From: Sphingomonas sp. SUN019
GTDB taxonomy: Bacteria; Pseudomonadota; Alphaproteobacteria; Sphingomonadales; Sphingomonadaceae
Length of the DNA stretch: 64,000 bases
Assembly (NCBI RefSeq): GCF_024758705.1
Contig: NZ_CP096971.1
Location: forward strand, 3,315,501 to 3,379,500
Direction: 5' to 3'
Part shown: positions 8,173-53,539 of the stretch, piece after piece
How the letters are laid out: each line of letters opens with the position of its first letter
Numbering within the stretch: the stretch's first letter is position 1
Notes under the pieces: generated by a model
What the model was told of the DNA's origin: nothing
Database searches by the model: none
What the model saw: only the letters and a program-made list of their open reading frames with translations
Made by a program: the position numbers and the translations under genes

Positions 8173-8180
8173 CTCTTGCC

Positions 8181-8286
8181 GTCATCCCCGCGAAAGCGGA
8201 GACCCATGGCGCGCTTTCGCAGCAAATTGCGACCTTCGGATGGAAGGCGATCGTCGGCCATGGGTCCCCGCTTTCGCGGGGATGAC
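8181..8286. repeat. Palindromic intergenic element, GTCATCCCCGCGAAAGC family
   Basis: Arms 8181-8210 and 8257-8286 are 30-base inverted repeats with a single mismatch around a 46-base centre. The same type of sequence (GTCAT-CCC-CGCGAA) recurs at 36846-36943. It lies between the CoA-binding gene and the DUF1206 gene and may fold at the end of the upstream transcript. Confidence 0.85.
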
Positions 8287-8350
8287 GCTGGATTGGGCGA
8301 TGCGGAACGCGCCTCACACTTGGTCGTTTCCCGATCGAAGGGGACCAAGA

Positions 8351-14632: not shown

Positions 14633-14677
14633 GCGCGCTCCCCGAGGGCAGGAGGCGTGCACGCTCAGGAGATATGG

Positions 14678-16204
14678 ATGTCGTCGACGATCGCCGAACT
14701 CGCACGCCGCCGCGACGCCGCCCGGATGGGGGGCGGCGAGAAGCGCATCGCCGCGCAGCACGCCAAGGGCAAGCTGACCGCGCGCGAACGGCTTGATGTG
14801 TTGCTCGACGAGAATTCGTTTGAGGAACTCGACATGTTCGTCGAGCATAATTGCGTCGATTTCGGGATGCAGGATCAGGTCATTCCGGGCGACGGCGTGG
14901 TCACGGGATCGGGCACGATCAACGGGCGGCTGGTGTTCGTGTTCTCGCAGGACTTCACCGTCTTCGGCGGGTCGCTCAGCGAACGCCACGCGCAGAAAAT
15001 CTGCAAGGTCATGGACATGGCGCTGAAGGTCGGCGCGCCGGTGATCGGGCTGAACGACAGTGGTGGCGCGCGCATCCAGGAGGGGGTCGCCTCGCTTGGC
15101 GGCTATGCCGAGGTGTTCCAGCGCAACGTGCTGGCGTCGGGCGTGGTACCGCAGATCAGCCTCATCATGGGGCCATGCGCGGGCGGCGCGGTGTATTCGC
15201 CCGCGATGACCGACTTCATCTTCATGGTGAAGGATTCCAGCTACATGTTCGTCACCGGCCCCGATGTAGTGAAGACGGTGACGAATGAGGTCGTGACGCA
15301 GGAGGCGCTGGGCGGCGCGGTGACGCACACGACCAAGACGAGCGTCGCGGACAATGCGTTCGAGGACGATATCGAGGCGCTGCTGGCGGCGCGCGATTTC
15401 TTCGATTTCCTGCCCGAGTCCAACCGCGCGGGCGTGCCCGAGCGGCCGACCGCCGATGCGTGGGACCGGATCGAAGACAGCCTGGACACGCTGATTCCAG
15501 CAAGCGCCAATCAGCCGTATGACATGCACGAGGTCGTGCGGAAGGTGCTGGACGAGGGTGATTTCTTCGAGGTGCAGCCGAAGCACGCGGCCAACATCCT
15601 GATCGGTTTCGGGCGGATCGAGGGGCGGACGGTCGGCGTGGTCGCGAACCAGCCGATGGTGCTGGCTGGGGTGCTGGACATCAATTCGTCGAAGAAGGCG
15701 GCGCGCTTCGTGCGCTTCTGCGACGCGTTCGATATCGCGATCCTGACCTTCGTCGACGTGCCGGGGTTCCTGCCGGGTACGGCGCAAGAGCATAACGGTA
15801 TCATCAAGCACGGCGCGAAGCTGCTGTTCGCTTATGCCGAGGCGACCGTGCCCAAGATCACCGTCATCACGCGCAAGGCCTATGGCGGCGCGTATGACGT
15901 GATGGCGTCGAAGCATCTGCGCGGCGATCTGAACTACGCCTGGCCGACCGCCGAGATCGCGGTGATGGGGGCGAAGGGCGCGGTGGAGATCATTTTCCGC
16001 GGCAAAACGACGGACGAGATCGCTGAGCGGACGGCGGAATATGAAGCCCGGTTCGCCAACCCGTTCGTGGCGGCGAGCAAGGGGTTCATCGACGAAGTGA
16101 TCCAGCCGCATTCCACCCGGCGGCGGATCGCGCTGGGGCTACGGAAACTGCGCGGGAAGCAGCTGGAGAATCCGTGGAAGAAGCATGACAATATCCCTCT
16201 CTGA
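14678..16204 (+). CDS. pccB: Propionyl-CoA carboxylase, beta (carboxyltransferase) subunit
   Basis: A 508-residue carboxyltransferase that transfers the carboxyl group from biotin on PccA to propionyl-CoA, giving (S)-methylmalonyl-CoA. The two crotonase-like halves are both present: the N-terminal half has [17 protein letters not shown] and [12 protein letters not shown], the C-terminal half has [23 protein letters not shown] and [12 protein letters not shown]. The ATG at 14678 follows AGGAG by 6 bases; an in-frame GTG at 14657 lacks support. It is the first gene of the propionate operon, downstream of the ScfR boxes. Substrate choice (propionyl rather than acetyl) is inferred from mce and mutase in the same operon. 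Confidence 0.95.
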
Positions 16205-17370: not shown

Positions 17371-17474
17371 CCGCTCATCCCGAGGAGGCATTGAGCTTGT
17401 CGAAATGCCTTCTCGAAGGATCGTGGTTCGAGACGATGCTTCGACAAGCTCGGCATCTCCTCACCATGAGCGGG
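17371..17474. repeat. Palindromic element, CGCTCATCC-GAGGAG family
   Basis: Imperfect inverted arms at about 17371-17390 and 17454-17474 (CCCGCTCAT against ATGAGCGGG), with inner complementary TTGAGCTTGTCGAA and TTCGACAAGCTCGG. The same family occurs at 24796-24922 and in degenerate form near 29969-30144. It fills the gap between mce and the hydratase, ending about 26 bases before the latter's ATG. Confidence 0.75.
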
Positions 17475-18289: not shown

Positions 18290-18308
18290 GCTCTGCCCCC
18301 ACAGCTTT

Positions 18309-18416
18309 ACCACCCCGGCGAACGCCGGGGTCCAGTGTCGAGGTATCTTGTGACTGAGGACTTCGCTCCGTTCCGACGACCTTTGCAACTGGACCCCGGC
18401 GTTCGCCGGGGAGGTG
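18309..18416. repeat. Palindromic element, CCCCGGCG-AACGCCGGGG family, carrying the mutase ribosome site
   Basis: Arms 18309-18335 and 18389-18416 are near-perfect inverted repeats, each itself palindromic around CCCCGGCG-CGCCGGGG. The right arm ends in GGGGAGGTGAG, and GGAGGTGA at 18409-18416 is the best Shine-Dalgarno match for the mutase ATG at 18425. The same family occurs at 20581-20651, 28602-28712 and as a half copy at 37704-37734. Confidence 0.88.
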
Positions 18417-18424
18417 AGTAAGAA

Positions 18425-20566
18425 ATGACCGACACGAAACCCACCCTCGACGACTGGGCCGCCGCCGCCGCGAAGGAGGTGAAGGGCGCGGACCTGACGT
18501 GGCCGACGCCGGAGGGGATCGACGTCAAGCCGCTCTACACTGCCGAGGACGTGACCGAAGACCCAGGCCTGCCCGGCTTCGCGCCGTTCACGCGCGGGGT
18601 GCGCGCGTCGATGTATGCGGGGCGGCCGTGGACGATCCGGCAATATGCGGGTTTCTCGACTGCGGAGGAATCGAACGCCTTCTACCGCCGCAACCTGGCT
18701 GCGGGGCAGAAGGGGCTTTCGGTCGCGTTCGACCTCGCGACGCATCGCGGCTACGATTCCGATCACCCGCGCGTGACCGGCGACGTCGGCAAGGCGGGCG
18801 TCGCGATCGACAGCGTCGAGGACATGAAGATCCTGTTCGACGGCATCCCGCTCGACCAGATGAGCGTCAGCATGACGATGAACGGCGCGGTCATCCCGAT
18901 CCTCGCCTTCTTCATTGTCGCGGGGGAAGAACAGGGCGTGCCCCGCGCCAAACTCGACGGAACCATCCAGAACGACATCCTGAAGGAGTTCATGGTCCGC
19001 AACACATATATCTACCCGCCCGAACCATCGATGCGCATCATCAGCGATATCTTCGGTTACACCAGCCGCGAGATGCCGAAGTTCAACAGCATCTCGATCA
19101 GCGGCTATCATATGCAGGAGGCGGGGGCGACGCAGCTGCATGAGCTGGCGTTCACGATCGCCGACGGCATGGAATATGTGAAATACGGCGTTGCTTCCGG
19201 CCTCGACATCGACAAGTTCGCCGGGCGGCTGTCGTTCTTCTTCGCGATCGGCATGAATTTCTTCATGGAGATCGCGAAACTGCGCGCCGCGCGGGTGCTG
19301 TGGCACCGCGTGATGACGCAATTGGGCGCGAAGGACGAACGCAGCAAGATGCTGCGGACGCATTGCCAGACCAGTGGTGTGTCGCTGACCGAGCAGGACC
19401 CGTATAACAACGTCATGCGCACCACCATTGAGGCGATGGCGGCGATGCTGGGCGGTACGCAGTCGCTTCACACCAACGCGCTGGACGAGGCGATCGCGCT
19501 CCCCACCGATTTCTCCGCCCGCATCGCGCGCAACACGCAGATCGTGATCCAGGAAGAAACGGGCATGACGAAGGTCGTCGATCCCTTGGGCGGCAGTTAT
19601 TACGTCGAGAGCCTGACGCAAAGCCTGGTCGACGGCGCGTGGGAGATCATCGAGCGCGTGCAGGCCGAAGGCGGGATGGCGAAGGCGGTGGCCGCCGGCT
19701 GGCCCAAGGCAATGATCGAGGAAGCGAGCGCGGCTCGCGCGGCTCGGGTCGATCGCGGTGAGGACGTGATTGTCGGGGTCAACAAATACAAGCTCGCGCA
19801 GCAGGATGCTATCGAGATCCTCGACGTGGATAACTTCGCGGTGCGGGAATCGCAGATCCGGCGGATCGAGCGGGTGAAGGCGACGCGGGATGAGGCGGCG
19901 TGCCAGTCCGCGCTGGATGCGTTGCGCGAGGGTGCGAAGGGTAGCGGGAATCTCCTCGCGCTCGCCGTCGACGCCGCCCGCACTCGCGCCACGCTCGGGG
20001 AAATCTCGCAGGCGATGGAGGATGTGTTCGGCCGCTATGGGACTCAGCCGACGCCGGTGAAGGGTATCTACGGCGGCGCATATGTCGACGACGCGCGCTG
20101 GGCGCGGCTTGAGGACGGCGTGGAGGCGACCGAACGGCGGCTGGGGCGCAAACCGCGGATGCTGGTCGCCAAGATGGGGCAGGACGGGCACGATCGCGGC
20201 GCGAACCTCGTGTCGTCGATGTTCGGTGATCTGGGGTTTGAGATCGTGCCGGGGCCGTTGTTCCAGACCCCGTCCGAAGCCGCGAAGCTGGCGCTCGAAA
20301 AGGACGTCGACGTCGTCGGCGCGTCCAGCCTCGCGGCGGGGCACAAGACGTTGATCCCCGAGCTGATCGGTCACCTGAAGGACGCCGGTCGCGCCGATAT
20401 CAAGGTGATCGCGGGCGGGGTGATCCCCGCGCAGGATTACCAGGCGCTGCGTGACGCCGGGGTGCAGGCGATCTTCGGCCCCGGCACCAATTTGATCCAG
20501 GCGGCGGAGGAGGTGTTGCGGCTGCTCGGCCACAATATGCCGCCGCAAGAGGAAGCTGCTGAATGA
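18425..20566 (+). CDS. scpA: Methylmalonyl-CoA mutase, single-chain
   Basis: A 713-residue adenosylcobalamin enzyme that converts (R)-methylmalonyl-CoA to succinyl-CoA. The N-terminal TIM barrel (to about residue 560) includes [19 protein letters not shown] and [20 protein letters not shown]; the C-terminal domain carries the cobalamin-binding [13 protein letters not shown] with the base-on His. As a full-length large-subunit chain it resembles the homodimeric ScpA type. Its ribosome site is supplied by the preceding palindromic element, and its stop overlaps the next ATG. No MeaB-type chaperone gene is seen in the window. Confidence 0.97.
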
Positions 20567-22708: not shown

Positions 22709-24778
22709 ATGTTCAAAAAAATCCTGGTCGCCAATCGCGGCGAGATCGCGTGTCGGGTGTTTCGCACCGCCAAGAAGATGGGGCTGAAGACCGTCGCGGT
22801 ATATTCGGATGCCGATGCGCGGTCCCCGCACGTGCTGATGGCGGACGAGGCGGTGCGGCTGGGGCCGGCGCCCGCGGCTGACTCGTACCTCAAGGCCGAG
22901 CTGATCCTGCTCGCCGCGAAGGAGACGGGGGCGGATTGTATTCATCCCGGCTATGGCTTCCTGTCCGAGCGCGAGAGCTTCGCGCGGGCCTGCGCGGAGG
23001 CGGGGATCGCCTTTGTCGGACCGCCGCCGAATGCGATCGCGGCGATGGGGGACAAGATCGAATCGAAGAAGCTCGCCAAGGCCGCGGGGGTCAATGTCGT
23101 CCCGGGCTTCCTGGGCGAGATCGCCGATACCGACGAGGCGGTGCGTATCGCCACCGACATCGGCTATCCGGTGATGATGAAGGCCAGCGCGGGCGGCGGC
23201 GGCAAGGGGATGCGGCTGGCATATAGCGAACAGGACGTGCACGAAGGGTTCGAGGCGACCAAGCGCGAGGGGCTGGCCAGCTTCGGCGACGACCGCGTGT
23301 TCATCGAAAAGTTCATCGAAAGCCCGCGCCATATCGAAATCCAGGTGATCGGCGATCAGCACGGCAACGTCGTGTACCTGAACGAACGCGAATGCTCGAT
23401 CCAGCGCCGCCACCAGAAGGTGGTCGAGGAAGCGCCGTCGCCGTTCGTGACGCCGAAGATGCGCAAGGCGATGGGCGAACAGGCGGTCGCGCTGGCGCAG
23501 GCGGTGGGTTATTATTCGGCGGGAACGGTCGAGCTGATCGTGTCGGGTGCGGATACCACGGGCGAGGGATTCTACTTCCTCGAGATGAACACCCGGCTGC
23601 AGGTGGAACATCCGGTGACCGAGGAGATCACCGGCGTCGATCTGGTCGAACTGATGATCCGCGTCGCGGCGGGGGAAAAGCTGCCGTTTGGGCAGGATGA
23701 TGTCGGGATCAATGGCTGGGCGATCGAGAACCGGGTGTATGCCGAGGATCCGTATCGCGGGTTTTTGCCCAGTATCGGGCGGCTGGTTCGGTATAATCCT
23801 CCTTCCTCCTCCGTCATTGCGAGCGAAGCGAAGCAAGCCAGTGACGGACCGCGTGACTCTGGGTTGCTTCGCTCCGCTCGCAATGACGATGTTGTGGTCC
23901 GCGTCGACGACGGTGTTACCGAGGGCGGCGAGGTGTCGATGTTCTACGACCCGATGATCGCGAAGCTCATTACCTGGGCGCCGACGCGCGAGGCGGCGAT
24001 CGATGCGCAGATTGCGGCGCTCGATGCGTTCGAGATCGACGGGCCGGGCAACAACATCGACTTCCTGTCCGCGCTGATGCAGCACCCGCGTTTCCGGTCG
24101 GGGAACATCACGACCGGCTTCATCGCGGAGGAATATCCCGACGGTTTCCACGGCGCGCCCGCGTCCGACGAACTGGTCCGCACGCTGGCGGGCGTCGCGG
24201 CGTTCGCGGCGACCGCAGAGGCGGATCGGGCGCGGCGGGTCGACGGACAGCTTGGCGACAAGCTGCAGCCGCCCGCCGACTGGGTAGTGCGGATCGGGAA
24301 GGTCGATCATGCGGTGACGATCTCGACCGATGGGCTCGTCGTGGACGGCGAAGAGATCGTGGCCGCGATGGAATATACGCCGGGCGACCGGATGGTGCTG
24401 GTGGAGAGCCTGTCCGATGACGGCGCGGACCTGAGCGTCCGCATCGCTAGGACGCGCACCGGGTTCAGGCTGACCACCCGCGGCGCGTCGCACATCGCCC
24501 GCGTCCTGCCCGCGCGGGTCGCGCCTTATGCCAATCACCTGATCGACAAGGTGCCGCCCGATTTGTCCAAATTCCTGATCGCGCCGATGCCGGGGCTGTT
24601 GGTGCGGCTGGACGTGGGCGTCGGTGACCGGGTCGAGGCGGGGCAGCCGCTGGCGGTGGTCGAGGCGATGAAGATGGAGAATATCCTGCGCGCGGAGAAA
24701 TCGGCGGTGGTGAAGGCGATCAGCGCGCAGCAGGGGGAAAGCCTGAGCGTTGATCAGGTGATTCTGGAGTTGGAGTAA
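22709..24778 (+). CDS. pccA: Propionyl-CoA carboxylase, alpha (biotin carboxylase + biotin carrier) subunit with repeat-derived insertion
   Basis: A 689-residue biotin-dependent subunit that carboxylates biotin with ATP and bicarbonate. In order: biotin carboxylase N-domain (ILVANRGEIACRVFRTAK), ATP-grasp domain with KASAGGGGKGMRL, the C-domain with EMNTRLQVEHPVTE, a linker domain, and the C-terminal biotinyl domain with the target Lys in VVEAMKMEN near residue 654. Residues 368-394 (starting SVIASEAKQ, ending RSARNDD) are encoded by a palindromic element and fall between RLVRYNPP and VVVRVDDGV, where relatives have a short turn. The frame and all motifs after it are intact, so the enzyme is probably functional. 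Confidence 0.96.
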   Translation: MFKKILVANRGEIACRVFRTAKKMGLKTVAVYSDADARSPHVLMADEAVRLGPAPAADSYLKAELILLAAKETGADCIHPGYGFLSERESFARACAEAGIAFVGPPPNAIAAMGDKIESKKLAKAAGVNVVPGFLGEIADTDEAVRIATDIGYPVMMKASAGGGGKGMRLAYSEQDVHEGFEATKREGLASFGDDRVFIEKFIESPRHIEIQVIGDQHGNVVYLNERECSIQRRHQKVVEEAPSPFVTPKMRKAMGEQAVALAQAVGYYSAGTVELIVSGADTTGEGFYFLEMNTRLQVEHPVTEEITGVDLVELMIRVAAGEKLPFGQDDVGINGWAIENRVYAEDPYRGFLPSIGRLVRYNPPSSSVIASEAKQASDGPRDSGLLRSARNDDVVVRVDDGVTEGGEVSMFYDPMIAKLITWAPTREAAIDAQIAALDAFEIDGPGNNIDFLSALMQHPRFRSGNITTGFIAEEYPDGFHGAPASDELVRTLAGVAAFAATAEADRARRVDGQLGDKLQPPADWVVRIGKVDHAVTISTDGLVVDGEEIVAAMEYTPGDRMVLVESLSDDGADLSVRIARTRTGFRLTTRGASHIARVLPARVAPYANHLIDKVPPDLSKFLIAPMPGLLVRLDVGVGDRVEAGQPLAVVEAMKMENILRAEKSAVVKAISAQQGESLSVDQVILELE
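23812..23888. repeat. Palindromic element inserted in frame in pccA
   Basis: Arms 23812-23836 and 23864-23888 are 25-base inverted repeats with one mismatch (CATTGCGAGCGAAGCGAAG core) around a 27-base centre. This VIASEAKQ-type repeat is normally intergenic in alphaproteobacteria. Here it is wholly within the biotin carboxylase C-domain coding region and keeps the frame open. It is the only copy of this family seen in the window. Confidence 0.9.
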
Positions 24779-24795: not shown

Positions 24796-24922
24796 CCAAA
24801 ACCCGCTCATCCTGAGGAGCGGCTGAGCGAAGTCGAAGACGCGTCTCGAAGGGCGGTCTTGGCGCGTCCTTCGAGACGGGCCTTCGACAAGCTCAGGCCC
24901 TCCTCAGGATGAGCGATTTTGG
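24796..24922. repeat. Palindromic element after pccA, likely operon end
   Basis: Arms 24796-24819 and 24900-24922 pair with one base bulge and a mismatch (CCCGCTCATCCTGAGGAG against CTCCTCAGGATGAGCG). The interior holds further complementary CTTCGAGACG segments. It is the fuller version of the element at 17371-17474. It begins 18 bases after the pccA stop, so a transcript would end in a large hairpin here. Confidence 0.85.
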
Positions 24923-28601: not shown

Positions 28602-28712
28602 GCACCTCCCCGGCGGAGGCCGGGGCCCAGTGGCATCGAACGAAGTAACGAAGGTCGTCGCGCGCCAACGAAGTTCATTGCAGCTGGGCCCCGGCTTTCG
28701 CCGGGGAGGTGC
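28602..28712. repeat. Palindromic element within the export operon
   Basis: Arms 28602-28630 and 28684-28712 are 29-base inverted repeats with two mismatches (CACCTCCCCGGCG and CGCCGGGGAGGTG ends). It is a GGGCCCAG variant of the family at 18309 and 20581. It lies between the ATPase and permease genes, 33 bases before the permease ATG, so its AGGTG is too far to act as a ribosome site. Confidence 0.87.
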
Positions 28713-31691: not shown

Positions 31692-31799
31692 AAGCCCCTC
31701 CCCTTCAGGGGAGGGGTGGGGGTGGGGTGTCTCAGTCTCACCGAGTGTTCGCACGTGGATAGACCCCGCCCCAACCCCTCCCCTGAAGGGGAGGGGCTT
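31692..31799. repeat. Palindromic element, CCCCTCCCCTTCAGGGGAGGGG family
   Basis: Arms 31692-31716 and 31775-31799 are exact 25-base inverted repeats; purine- and pyrimidine-rich tails extend the pairing inward. It fills the gap between the molybdopterin-subunit stop and the XdhC start within the operon. Confidence 0.88.
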
Positions 31800-36845: not shown

Positions 36846-36943
36846 CCGTCATTCCCGCGAAGGCGGGAATCCATAGTCGCTGGTCTCGCAGCAGGTGCGG
36901 CAACGTCAGTGCTTATGGATTCCCGCCTTCGCGGGAATGACGG
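36846..36943. repeat. Palindromic element overlapping the hydrolase 3' end
   Basis: Arms 36846-36875 and 36914-36943 are exact 30-base inverted repeats (CGTCATTCCCGCGAAGGCGGG core). The right arm, read on the minus strand, encodes the last ten residues of the adjacent alpha/beta hydrolase, whose stop codon is at the inner arm boundary. It separates that gene from the convergent small lipoprotein gene. Confidence 0.9.
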
Positions 36944-52139: not shown

Positions 52140-52145
52140 GCTAAA

Positions 52146-52279
52146 AATCCTCCCCGGCACGGGGAGGGGGACCAGCCGCAGGCTGGTGGAGGGGGCGTGC
52201 CACAGCAGACTCGCTCGCGGAGAGCCCCCTCCACCCCGCCGCTGCGCGTCGCGGTCCCCCTCCCTGTGCCGGGGAGGAT
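52146..52279. repeat. Palindromic element, CCTCCCCGGCACGGGGAGG family
   Basis: Arms 52146-52173 and 52253-52279 are inverted repeats with one mismatch; the centre holds a second complementary pair (GGTGGAGGGGGC against GCCCCCTCCACC). It fills the gap between the convergent kinase and LLM oxidoreductase genes. A second member is at 53361-53490. Confidence 0.87.
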
Positions 52280-53282: not shown

Positions 53283-53360
53283 GGAAAGAGATGTGGGGGC
53301 AAGGGTTGCGGAACGCTACCCGGTTCGGGCTTTGCGCGCGGCAATCAAAGCTACCACCCA

Positions 53361-53490
53361 AATCCTCCCCGGCACGGGGAGGGGGACCGTCGCAGACGGT
53401 GGAGGGGCAGCCAAGCAGGACCAGCGCGCGTGGCTGCCCCTCCACCACGCCGCTGCGCGTCGCGGTCCCCCTCCCCGTGCCGGGGAGGAA
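53361..53490. repeat. Palindromic element, CCTCCCCGGCACGGGGAGG family (second copy)
   Basis: Arms 53361-53389 and about 53463-53490 are near-perfect inverted repeats, with an inner complementary pair GGAGGGGCAGCCA and TGGCTGCCCCTCC. It is closely similar to the element at 52146-52279, and the two flank the LLM gene. It lies in the gap between two divergent gene starts (53282 and 53540). Confidence 0.88.
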
Positions 53491-53539
53491 TTGGGTTGCG
53501 CCTTGCCCCCATCACCCCCGCGACCTACAGCCCCGCACC

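What the first reader, a model, noticed from the sequence alone, without database searches (positions are those of the whole stretch)
23812..23888. A palindromic repeat is translated in frame inside PccA
A 77-base inverted-repeat element, of a type normally found between genes, lies inside the biotin carboxylase C-domain of a conserved enzyme and adds residues 368-394 (SVIASEAKQ...RSARNDD) without breaking the frame. All catalytic motifs on both sides are intact. This parallels the Rickettsia palindromic elements known to insert into proteins, but in a free-living alphaproteobacterium. The inserted peptide falls at a turn between YNPP and VRVDDG, where it could be tolerated as a surface loop.
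Basis: partly seen in the sequence, partly recalled or inferred. Interest (0 to 1): 0.78.

Follow-up and report, generated by a model that had tools for sequence, protein, structure and literature searches.

The report
Enzyme loop repeatedly invaded by palindromes
A short palindromic DNA repeat sits in frame inside a surface loop of a metabolic enzyme, and related bacteria appear to have filled the same loop independently with different, unrelated repeats, so this loop and a few like it may act as landing sites through which selfish DNA keeps writing new protein sequence.

Summary
In detail: window 23812-23888 is a 77-nt palindromic repeat (30-nt arms, 17-nt spacer), one of about nine copies in this 3.8-Mb genome, read in frame as residues 368-394 of an otherwise intact PccA. 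The larger finding is in the relatives. In 88 same-genus PccA loci the same loop ranges from 16 to 86 residues. 28 hold a palindrome stronger than all 100 shuffles (28 of the 31 loops of 40 residues or more); 34 match one of eight repeat families. On the PccA tree the strict set needs at least 25 changes of state, and sister species carry different families. The family in the loop tends to be abundant in that same genome (0 of 5000 label shuffles as strong). Of 149 testable repeat copies five lay inside genes: PccA, ValRS, LeuRS, DnaE, UvrA; ValRS, LeuRS and UvrA have loops of their own that hold different families in different species. AlphaFold puts the insert in a low-confidence hairpin loop; 10 of 12 informative pairs show relaxed constraint there. 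Best reading: permissive loops repeatedly capture, then erode, whatever palindromic repeat is spreading. Coding palindromes are known, also in sphingomonads; many-family capture at one protein site was not found in my searches. The mover is unknown.

The parts
22709..24778 (+). pccA, propionyl-CoA carboxylase alpha subunit, 689 aa, intact
   Evidence: model
23804..23899 (+). capture loop of PccA, about residues 366-397, between YNPP and RVDDGV; the only strongly length-variable segment of the protein in the rows compared (variance 296 against at most 12.4 elsewhere, 84 rows)
23812..23888 (+). 77-nt palindromic repeat (two inverted CGTC-tagged units, 17-nt spacer), read in frame as residues 368-394
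23812..23841 (+). left arm, 30 nt
23859..23888 (-). right arm, 30 nt, inverted copy
14657..16204 (+). pccB, beta subunit (Carboxyl_trans, 647 bits): likely partner of PccA, open frame

Best explanation
The PccA hairpin loop in the biotin carboxylase C-domain is a structurally permissive landing site. Several unrelated families of short palindromic repeats are spread through Sphingomonas genomes. Most insertions into genes are lost because they break an enzyme; insertions that are in frame, free of stops and fall in this loop (or in similar loops of ValRS, LeuRS, UvrA) survive as near-neutral surface peptide. The captured peptide then drifts, loses pieces in frame, and the site can be invaded again by another family. 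Shown: the insert, its repeat nature, many different families at the same site with a tree that demands many changes, match to repeats abundant in the same genome, relaxed constraint in most pairs compared, low predicted order. Inferred: translation of the peptide, neutrality for enzyme activity, and the transposition step itself (mobilising enzyme unknown).
For: Loop lengths 16-86 aa across 90 PccA loci, 88 of them same genus. 28 of 90 loops hold an inverted repeat beyond all 100 shuffles; 34 of 90 match one of 8 family consensuses better than all 40 shuffles; every one of these is same-genus. At least 26 label changes on a tree built without the loop (15 for repeat/no repeat), 25 for the strict 28 carriers, 24 without five long-branch or outgroup rows; different families in sister pairs L015/L018 (SH-aLRT 98), L042/L057 (98), L039/L080 (99), L036/L096 (90). 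Families F1-F5 are multicopy and patchy over 80 genomes; with the loop's own copy taken out, the 25 F1-F5 carriers sit at mean copy-number percentile 0.828 for their family against 0.591 with shuffled family labels (maximum 0.772), 0 of 5000 (0.848 against 0.594 with it left in). The same repeat is read in different frames: F3 as PSRLREGLGEG (L018) and PLPQAGGAGGG (L030) in PccA; F5 as SPQRKLGS in PccA (L073) and VTPAKAGVS in UvrA. Of 149 testable copies 5 are inside genes. ValRS site B: 20 of 46 parsed loci hold palindromic inserts (41-54 aa) and 26 are 9-17 aa; the own genome has an insert. LeuRS 8 of 26 read; UvrA 6 of 29 read. Loop pN/pS 0.50-0.81 in 10 of 12 informative pairs against 0.05-0.29 in the rest of the gene. 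Loop length variance 296 against at most 12.4 elsewhere. AF2: only segment below pLDDT 50 is 370-385.
Against: Two of 12 informative pairs show low loop pN/pS (0.03 for L107/L096, 0.18 for L024/L027), so some loops may be under constraint; pairs overlap and some compare independently gained repeats. One carrier (L091, genome G003) has no other copy of its assigned family by the pattern used. The eight consensuses were taken from the loops themselves; genome-wide copy number was checked for F1-F5 only, F7 and F8 by eye inside this window, F6 not at all. Beating 40 shuffles lets through about one loop in 41 by chance; an example is probably L136, a marginal F2 label in a non-palindromic loop. 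Three loops of 40 or more residues are not significant palindromes (L035, L045, L085), so other sources of loop growth may exist. Recombination within pccA could inflate the count of changes, and 32 of 87 inner branches of the tree are weak. No expression, proteomic or activity data.
Confidence: 0.83

Rival explanations
1. Targeted landing pads: the mobilising machinery prefers these sites (a DNA or structural signal, or a preference for earlier palindromes), so the concentration in a few loops reflects targeting and not only survival.
For: Only a handful of proteins turned up, and four of them (PccA, ValRS, LeuRS, UvrA) recur at one narrow site each; a filled loop often has a differently filled sister rather than an empty one.
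Against: The families differ in sequence and ends, so one shared target rule is unlikely; bases upstream of 15-20 copies per family carry at most 0.8 bit per position outside the element; 144 of 149 testable copies lie outside genes by the test used. The flank test is small and one-sided.
Confidence: 0.12
2. The hairpin is kept for a function in the mRNA or protein (ribosome pausing, transcript processing, or loop-mediated regulation), so different palindromes are interchangeable suppliers of a stem.
For: Very stable RNA stem; what the families share is the palindrome; two pairs with low loop pN/pS.
Against: 54 of 88 same-genus loci match no repeat family and 16-20 residue loops are common, so a stem is not required; some loops look like decayed half-elements (L026, L029, L070, L090: family match without a palindrome beyond all shuffles); different frames give unrelated peptides.
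Confidence: 0.06
3. The repeat is not in the protein: it is bypassed by the ribosome or removed from the RNA.
For: Would explain tolerance of bulky hairpins in conserved enzymes (inference only).
Against: No frame break at the loop was met in the 90 PccA loci read; the one frame break seen (L385) is near residue 322, outside the loop; same-genus rows listed show no stops inside. A bypassed insert would not need an open frame. Caveat: my loop reader requires an open frame; three same-genus genomes with partial matches (G007, G051, G084) were not read.
Confidence: 0.03

Closest known systems
CGTC-tagged REPs, CGTC-1 type, including intragenic REPs (Di Nocera, De Gregorio, Rocco 2013, PMC3733652; abstract, sections 6, 14, 15, first of two parts of section 17, and search passages read)
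   Same: CGTC end, CCA-like tail, inverted pairs, mostly alphaproteobacterial, mostly intergenic, apparently no dedicated transposase, occasionally inside genes (uvrA, dnaE, tRNA synthetases; also in S. alaskensis and E. litoralis).
   Different: They report REPs in genes of one functional category inserted at different sites, with recB of two Xanthomonas as the case of about the same site. Here one PccA loop takes eight labelled families in one genus, and three more enzymes show the same pattern; several of those families do not begin with CGTC.
Rickettsia palindromic elements (RPE; Ogata 2002, Claverie and Ogata 2003: recalled, and as cited in PMC3733652; the 2002 paper is not held)
   Same: Palindromic repeats inserted in frame in proteins that are likely functional; RPE-6 is equated with CGTC-1.
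   Different: Free-living genus, many unrelated families, turnover at the same protein position.
REPINs / RAYT-mobilised REPs (PMC3116915, PMC2817692: search listing and start of abstracts only)
   Same: Short palindromes, often in inverted pairs, spread through a genome without coding capacity (part recalled).
   Different: No Y1_Tnp (PF01797) match in this genome, so no RAYT candidate here.
MITEs linked to protein evolution in Coxiella (PMC5896051, search listing and start of abstract only)
   Same: Non-autonomous repeats proposed to feed protein evolution.
   Different: No parent transposon or target duplication was established here.

Membership tests
CGTC-tagged REP (CGTC-1) | terminal CGTC tag | tested here: met
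   both units begin CGTC at their outer ends
CGTC-tagged REP (CGTC-1) | complementary A-T at the first two stem positions and CCA tail | tested here: met
   met in the family rather than in this copy: other own copies read CGTC-ATTGC...GCAAT-CCA; in this copy both units read GCAA[G/C]-CC[A], so the first pair is lost; rule from section 6
CGTC-tagged REP (CGTC-1) | 8-bp stem and 4-nt loop of the published consensus | tested here: inconclusive
   the consensus is in a figure that is not held; half-units were not folded on their own
CGTC-tagged REP (CGTC-1) | mostly head-to-head dimers | tested here: inconclusive
   5 of 9 own elements show both half-sites about 51 nt apart in opposite orientation; the paper's head/tail naming could not be verified from the text
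CGTC-tagged REP (CGTC-1) | multicopy and mostly intergenic | tested here: met
   9 own elements, the other eight outside conserved ORFs by eye; 29 of 30 F1 copies not inside genes, the exception being this PccA
CGTC-tagged REP (CGTC-1) | no dedicated transposase | tested here: inconclusive
   only Y1_Tnp (PF01797) was sought: absent in own genome, control rings in 5 of 14 genomes
Rickettsia palindromic element (RPE) | in-frame palindromic insert in conserved protein | tested here: met
Rickettsia palindromic element (RPE) | occurs in Rickettsia, RPE sequence class | tested here: not met
   named close relatives of this PccA are Sphingomonas; no RPE consensus was compared
MITE | terminal inverted repeats of a resident transposase and target-site duplication | not tested
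   no empty sister site for a duplication test; only Y1_Tnp was searched

The most novel reading that the evidence does not exclude
A small set of enzyme loops in Sphingomonas (PccA, ValRS, LeuRS, UvrA, perhaps DnaE) are standing capture sites: continuously refilled by whichever of many palindromic families is active, so that selfish DNA is the main source of length and sequence evolution there, and possibly targeted rather than merely tolerated. They would serve as natural recorders of past repeat activity in each lineage.
Probability: 0.35. Interest if true: 0.85.

Novelty: new variant of a known kind. Interest (0 to 1): 0.72.

Why it matters
It turns a curiosity (one repeat inside one gene) into a replicated natural experiment: the same enzyme loop has accepted many different peptides of roughly 20-70 residues, in more than one reading frame, in living species. 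That makes it testable how selfish DNA creates new protein sequence, which sites of conserved enzymes tolerate it, and how fast such inserts erode. It also bears on the published speculation (PMC3733652, section 17) that repeats in repair genes such as uvrA may have changed their activity: in sphingomonads uvrA looks like one more permissive loop beside metabolic and tRNA-charging enzymes. And it suggests that repeats with no known transposase have moved recently enough to differ between sister species.

Tried and rejected
Pseudogene or second PccA copy: not supported. A RAYT as mover: no Y1_Tnp match in the own genome. A strong target motif upstream of the repeats: not seen, small samples. 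ValRS structure: the AlphaFold model is poor (mean pLDDT 53.9) and was not used; the sequence alignment to solved ValRS 1gax instead leaves two residues where this ValRS has 40. The idea that the PccA loop sits where E. coli AccC dimerises (Phe363/Arg366) is recalled only; the search found no held paper, so it is not used beyond the alignment (query 367 = AccC 362). UvrA was first read with patterns that matched nothing, then by eye and by a mended pattern. LeuRS: 26 of 31 loci read, 5 not (L424, L426, L427, L445, L446); a 13-residue LeuRS loop without a repeat (L435) scored 14.5 for F4, so scores near 14 are not safe. First pass of the copy-number test left the loop's own copy in; repeated without it, same conclusion. 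Literature searches touching this; in their listings, and in PMC3733652 as far as read, I found no description of many-family capture at one protein site apart from the recB remark.

Full report
What was checked first. Window 23812-23888 is 77 nt: two 30-nt arms around a 17-nt spacer, CGTC at both outer ends. Its inverted-repeat score (24) is beyond all 100 dinucleotide shuffles (mean 6.4) and the RNA folds at -57 kcal/mol, z -7.35. The own genome (one contig, 3.81 Mb; the window is 3315501-3379500) has 14 half-sites, which I pair into nine elements. By eye the other eight lie outside conserved reading frames. As a unit the 77 nt match end to end in five plasmid records of Novosphingobium and Methylosinus. 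The host gene pccA (22709-24778) is open over 689 codons and aligns over its full length to PCC alpha chains. pccB lies at 14657-16204 and the mutase, named by eye, at 18425-20566. The genome has 11 matches to PccA; only this one is listed, and the list goes down to 469 bits, so no second PccA of comparable score was seen.

The loop in relatives. I read the loop between the strand ending SIGRLVRY and EGGEVSMFYDP in 90 PccA loci (30 returned, 60 fetched): 88 loci from 87 same-genus genomes and 2 from the same order. Four same-genus genomes (G007, G026, G051, G084) were left out because their matches were partial; G026 was read later and has a frame break near residue 322, not at the loop; the other three were not read. 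Loop length runs from 16 to 86 residues. It is the only strongly length-variable segment: variance 296 against at most 12.4 elsewhere, in 84 rows (four long-branch or outgroup rows and two partial ones dropped). 28 of 90 loops contain an inverted repeat beyond all 100 shuffles. These are 28 of the 31 loops of 40 or more residues; the other three are L035, L045 and L085. None of the 59 shorter loops passes. 34 of 90 match one of eight family consensuses better than all 40 shuffles; about two such matches would be expected by chance. All carriers are same-genus. The window's family (F1) occurs in L015 (the window) and L042; the others hold F2 (CGTCATCCCCGCG), F3 (CCCCTCCCGC), F4 (CCGTTCG...GAGCGAAGTCGA), F5 (CGTCACCCCAGCG), F6, F7 and F8. 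Consensuses were drawn from the loops themselves, so genome-wide copy number was tested separately, for F1-F5.

Independent captures. A tree built from PccA without the loop (90 rows, 649 columns, quick method, 31 of 87 inner branches starred, 32 weak) needs at least 26 changes of the nine-state label and 15 for repeat/no repeat. Sister species with different families: L015 F1 / L018 F3 (SH-aLRT 98), L042 F1 / L057 F8 (98), L039 F3 / L080 F5 (99), L036 F3 / L096 F8 (90). A clade of eight close relatives holds F3, F4, F5 and F6. Counts of changes cannot tell gain from loss, and recombination inside the gene could add to them.

The loop samples the resident repeats. Genomes with a match, of 80 searched: F2 61, F1 17, F4 43, F5 63, F3 59. 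With the loop's own copy removed, the 25 carriers of F1-F5 have for their own family a mean copy-number percentile of 0.828; shuffling family labels among the same carriers gives 0.591 on average, 0.772 at most, 0 of 5000 as high (with the copy left in: 0.848, 0.594, 0.744). The window's genome and L042's genome are two of the 17 with F1 at all, and L042's has the most (358 half-sites). One carrier, L091 in G003, has no further copy of its assigned family.

How special is the site. 150 copies with 1.5 kb on each side were returned for F2, F1, F4 and F5, F3. They are the tool's choice among best matches, one or two per genome in the rows I saw, so not a random draw. By a codon-score test on both flanks, which of 90 PccA loops intragenic, 5 of 149 testable copies are inside genes: this PccA, and by eye a valyl-tRNA synthetase, a leucyl-tRNA synthetase, DnaE and UvrA.

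Three of those four behave like PccA. ValRS: between GWP and YPND, 20 of 46 parsed loci (50 fetched out of 80 genomes, partly score-selected, partly chosen by me; 4 unparsed) carry 41-54-residue inserts with inverted repeats: F4 4, F3 3, F8 8, unassigned 5 (family by score of 14 or more, no shuffles). The other 26 have 9-17 residues. The own genome's ValRS has an F8 insert there. Among 119 parsed of the 120 closest ValRS proteins, 50 have 10-11 residues and 69 are longer, 17-79; with coarse peptide labels of mine a tree of 118 needs 46 changes. Solved ValRS 1gax has two residues where this ValRS has 40. LeuRS, in 30 genomes, most of them picked for high repeat load, plus L256: of 26 loci read, 8 have inserts (loops of 41-52 residues; F3 4, F7 3, F4 1, by DNA score) and 18 have 13-18 residues. 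UvrA, same 30 genomes plus L320: of 29 loci read, 6 carry repeats (F3 3, F5 2, one weak F5 match, L392) and 23 do not. DnaE was seen once only.

Structure and constraint. AlphaFold2 of the window PccA (38-row alignment, mean pLDDT 87.0, pTM 0.81) has its only segment below 50 at residues 370-385, inside the insert, between strands 361-363 and 396-401; the best fold is PCC 3n6r. 3n6r itself has a long unrelated sequence here and 6ybp a shorter one, so the turn varies in length beyond this genus. Of 80 named loci 73 were parsed; among those not named Sphingomonas the loop is 16-40 residues, for example a conserved 29-residue form in Novosphingobium and Erythrobacter relatives, except Hephaestia mangrovi (54 residues, F4) and an unclassified Sphingomonadaceae MAG, L152 (47 residues, F4). 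pN/pS in the loop is 0.50-0.81 in 10 of 12 informative pairs (14 tried) against 0.05-0.29 in the rest of the gene; the exceptions are L107/L096 at 0.03 and L024/L027 at 0.18. The same repeat is read in different frames in different captures (F3 within PccA; F5 in PccA and UvrA), which speaks against selection for a given peptide.

Mechanism. Best supported: repeats of many families insert widely; selection removes those that break genes; a few loops tolerate in-frame, stop-free copies; captured peptide then drifts and is replaced. Not shown: translation, neutrality, and the mover. No Y1 transposase match exists in the own genome; PMC3733652 says CGTC repeats apparently lack a dedicated transposase (abstract). 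A one-sided look at 15-20 flanks per family for F1, F2, F4, F5 found no strong target motif.

Comparison with the literature. PMC3733652 (abstract, sections 6, 14, 15, first part of 17 and search passages read) describes CGTC repeats, equates R. conorii RPE-6 and RPE-4 with CGTC-1 and CGTC-4, and lists REPs inside genes including uvrA, dnaE and tRNA synthetases, with examples in S. alaskensis and E. litoralis. [quoted passage not shown] it speculates both about flexible loops and about altered repair functions. Many-family capture by one loop in one genus did not appear in the listings of searches of open-licence papers; that library lacks most subscription papers, so this is not proof of absence. 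I therefore rate it a new variant of a known kind.

Noticed in passing
window 24867-24915 and 17372-17420: Arms of a further repeat type, 84% complementary over 49 nt, lie just 3' of pccA and in another place before the mutase; not among the families counted.
   Followed up: no
window 52145-52278, 53356-53496, 31692-31799, 36846-36943, 8180-8287, 18308-18416, 28602-28712: Inverted repeats resembling, by eye, families that invade the PccA or ValRS loops elsewhere (F7, F8, F2, F5 types) in the window repeat list; their position relative to genes was not tested.
   Followed up: no
L362 / L386 (own genome, 137000-141000) and other ValRS loci: ValRS has a second variable stretch after WWGHRIPAWF: 32 residues in some species, 77-91 in others including the own genome, with no family match among 20 parsed loci. 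Origin unexplained.
   Followed up: partly
L053 and L056 (genome G025): One genome carries two similar PccA loci on different contigs.
   Followed up: no
L385 (genome G026): PccA reading frame changes near residue 322, away from the loop; may be a sequencing error.
   Followed up: partly
L412 (genome G083, uvrA): The UvrA frame is not continuous upstream of the loop in this genome; not read further.
   Followed up: no
Named loci L113-L158: Many Novosphingobium- and Erythrobacter-type PccA share a conserved 29-35 residue loop (such as PPVEGWTDDG..NGRRGVDG) at the same position: possibly an old, fixed capture.
   Followed up: no
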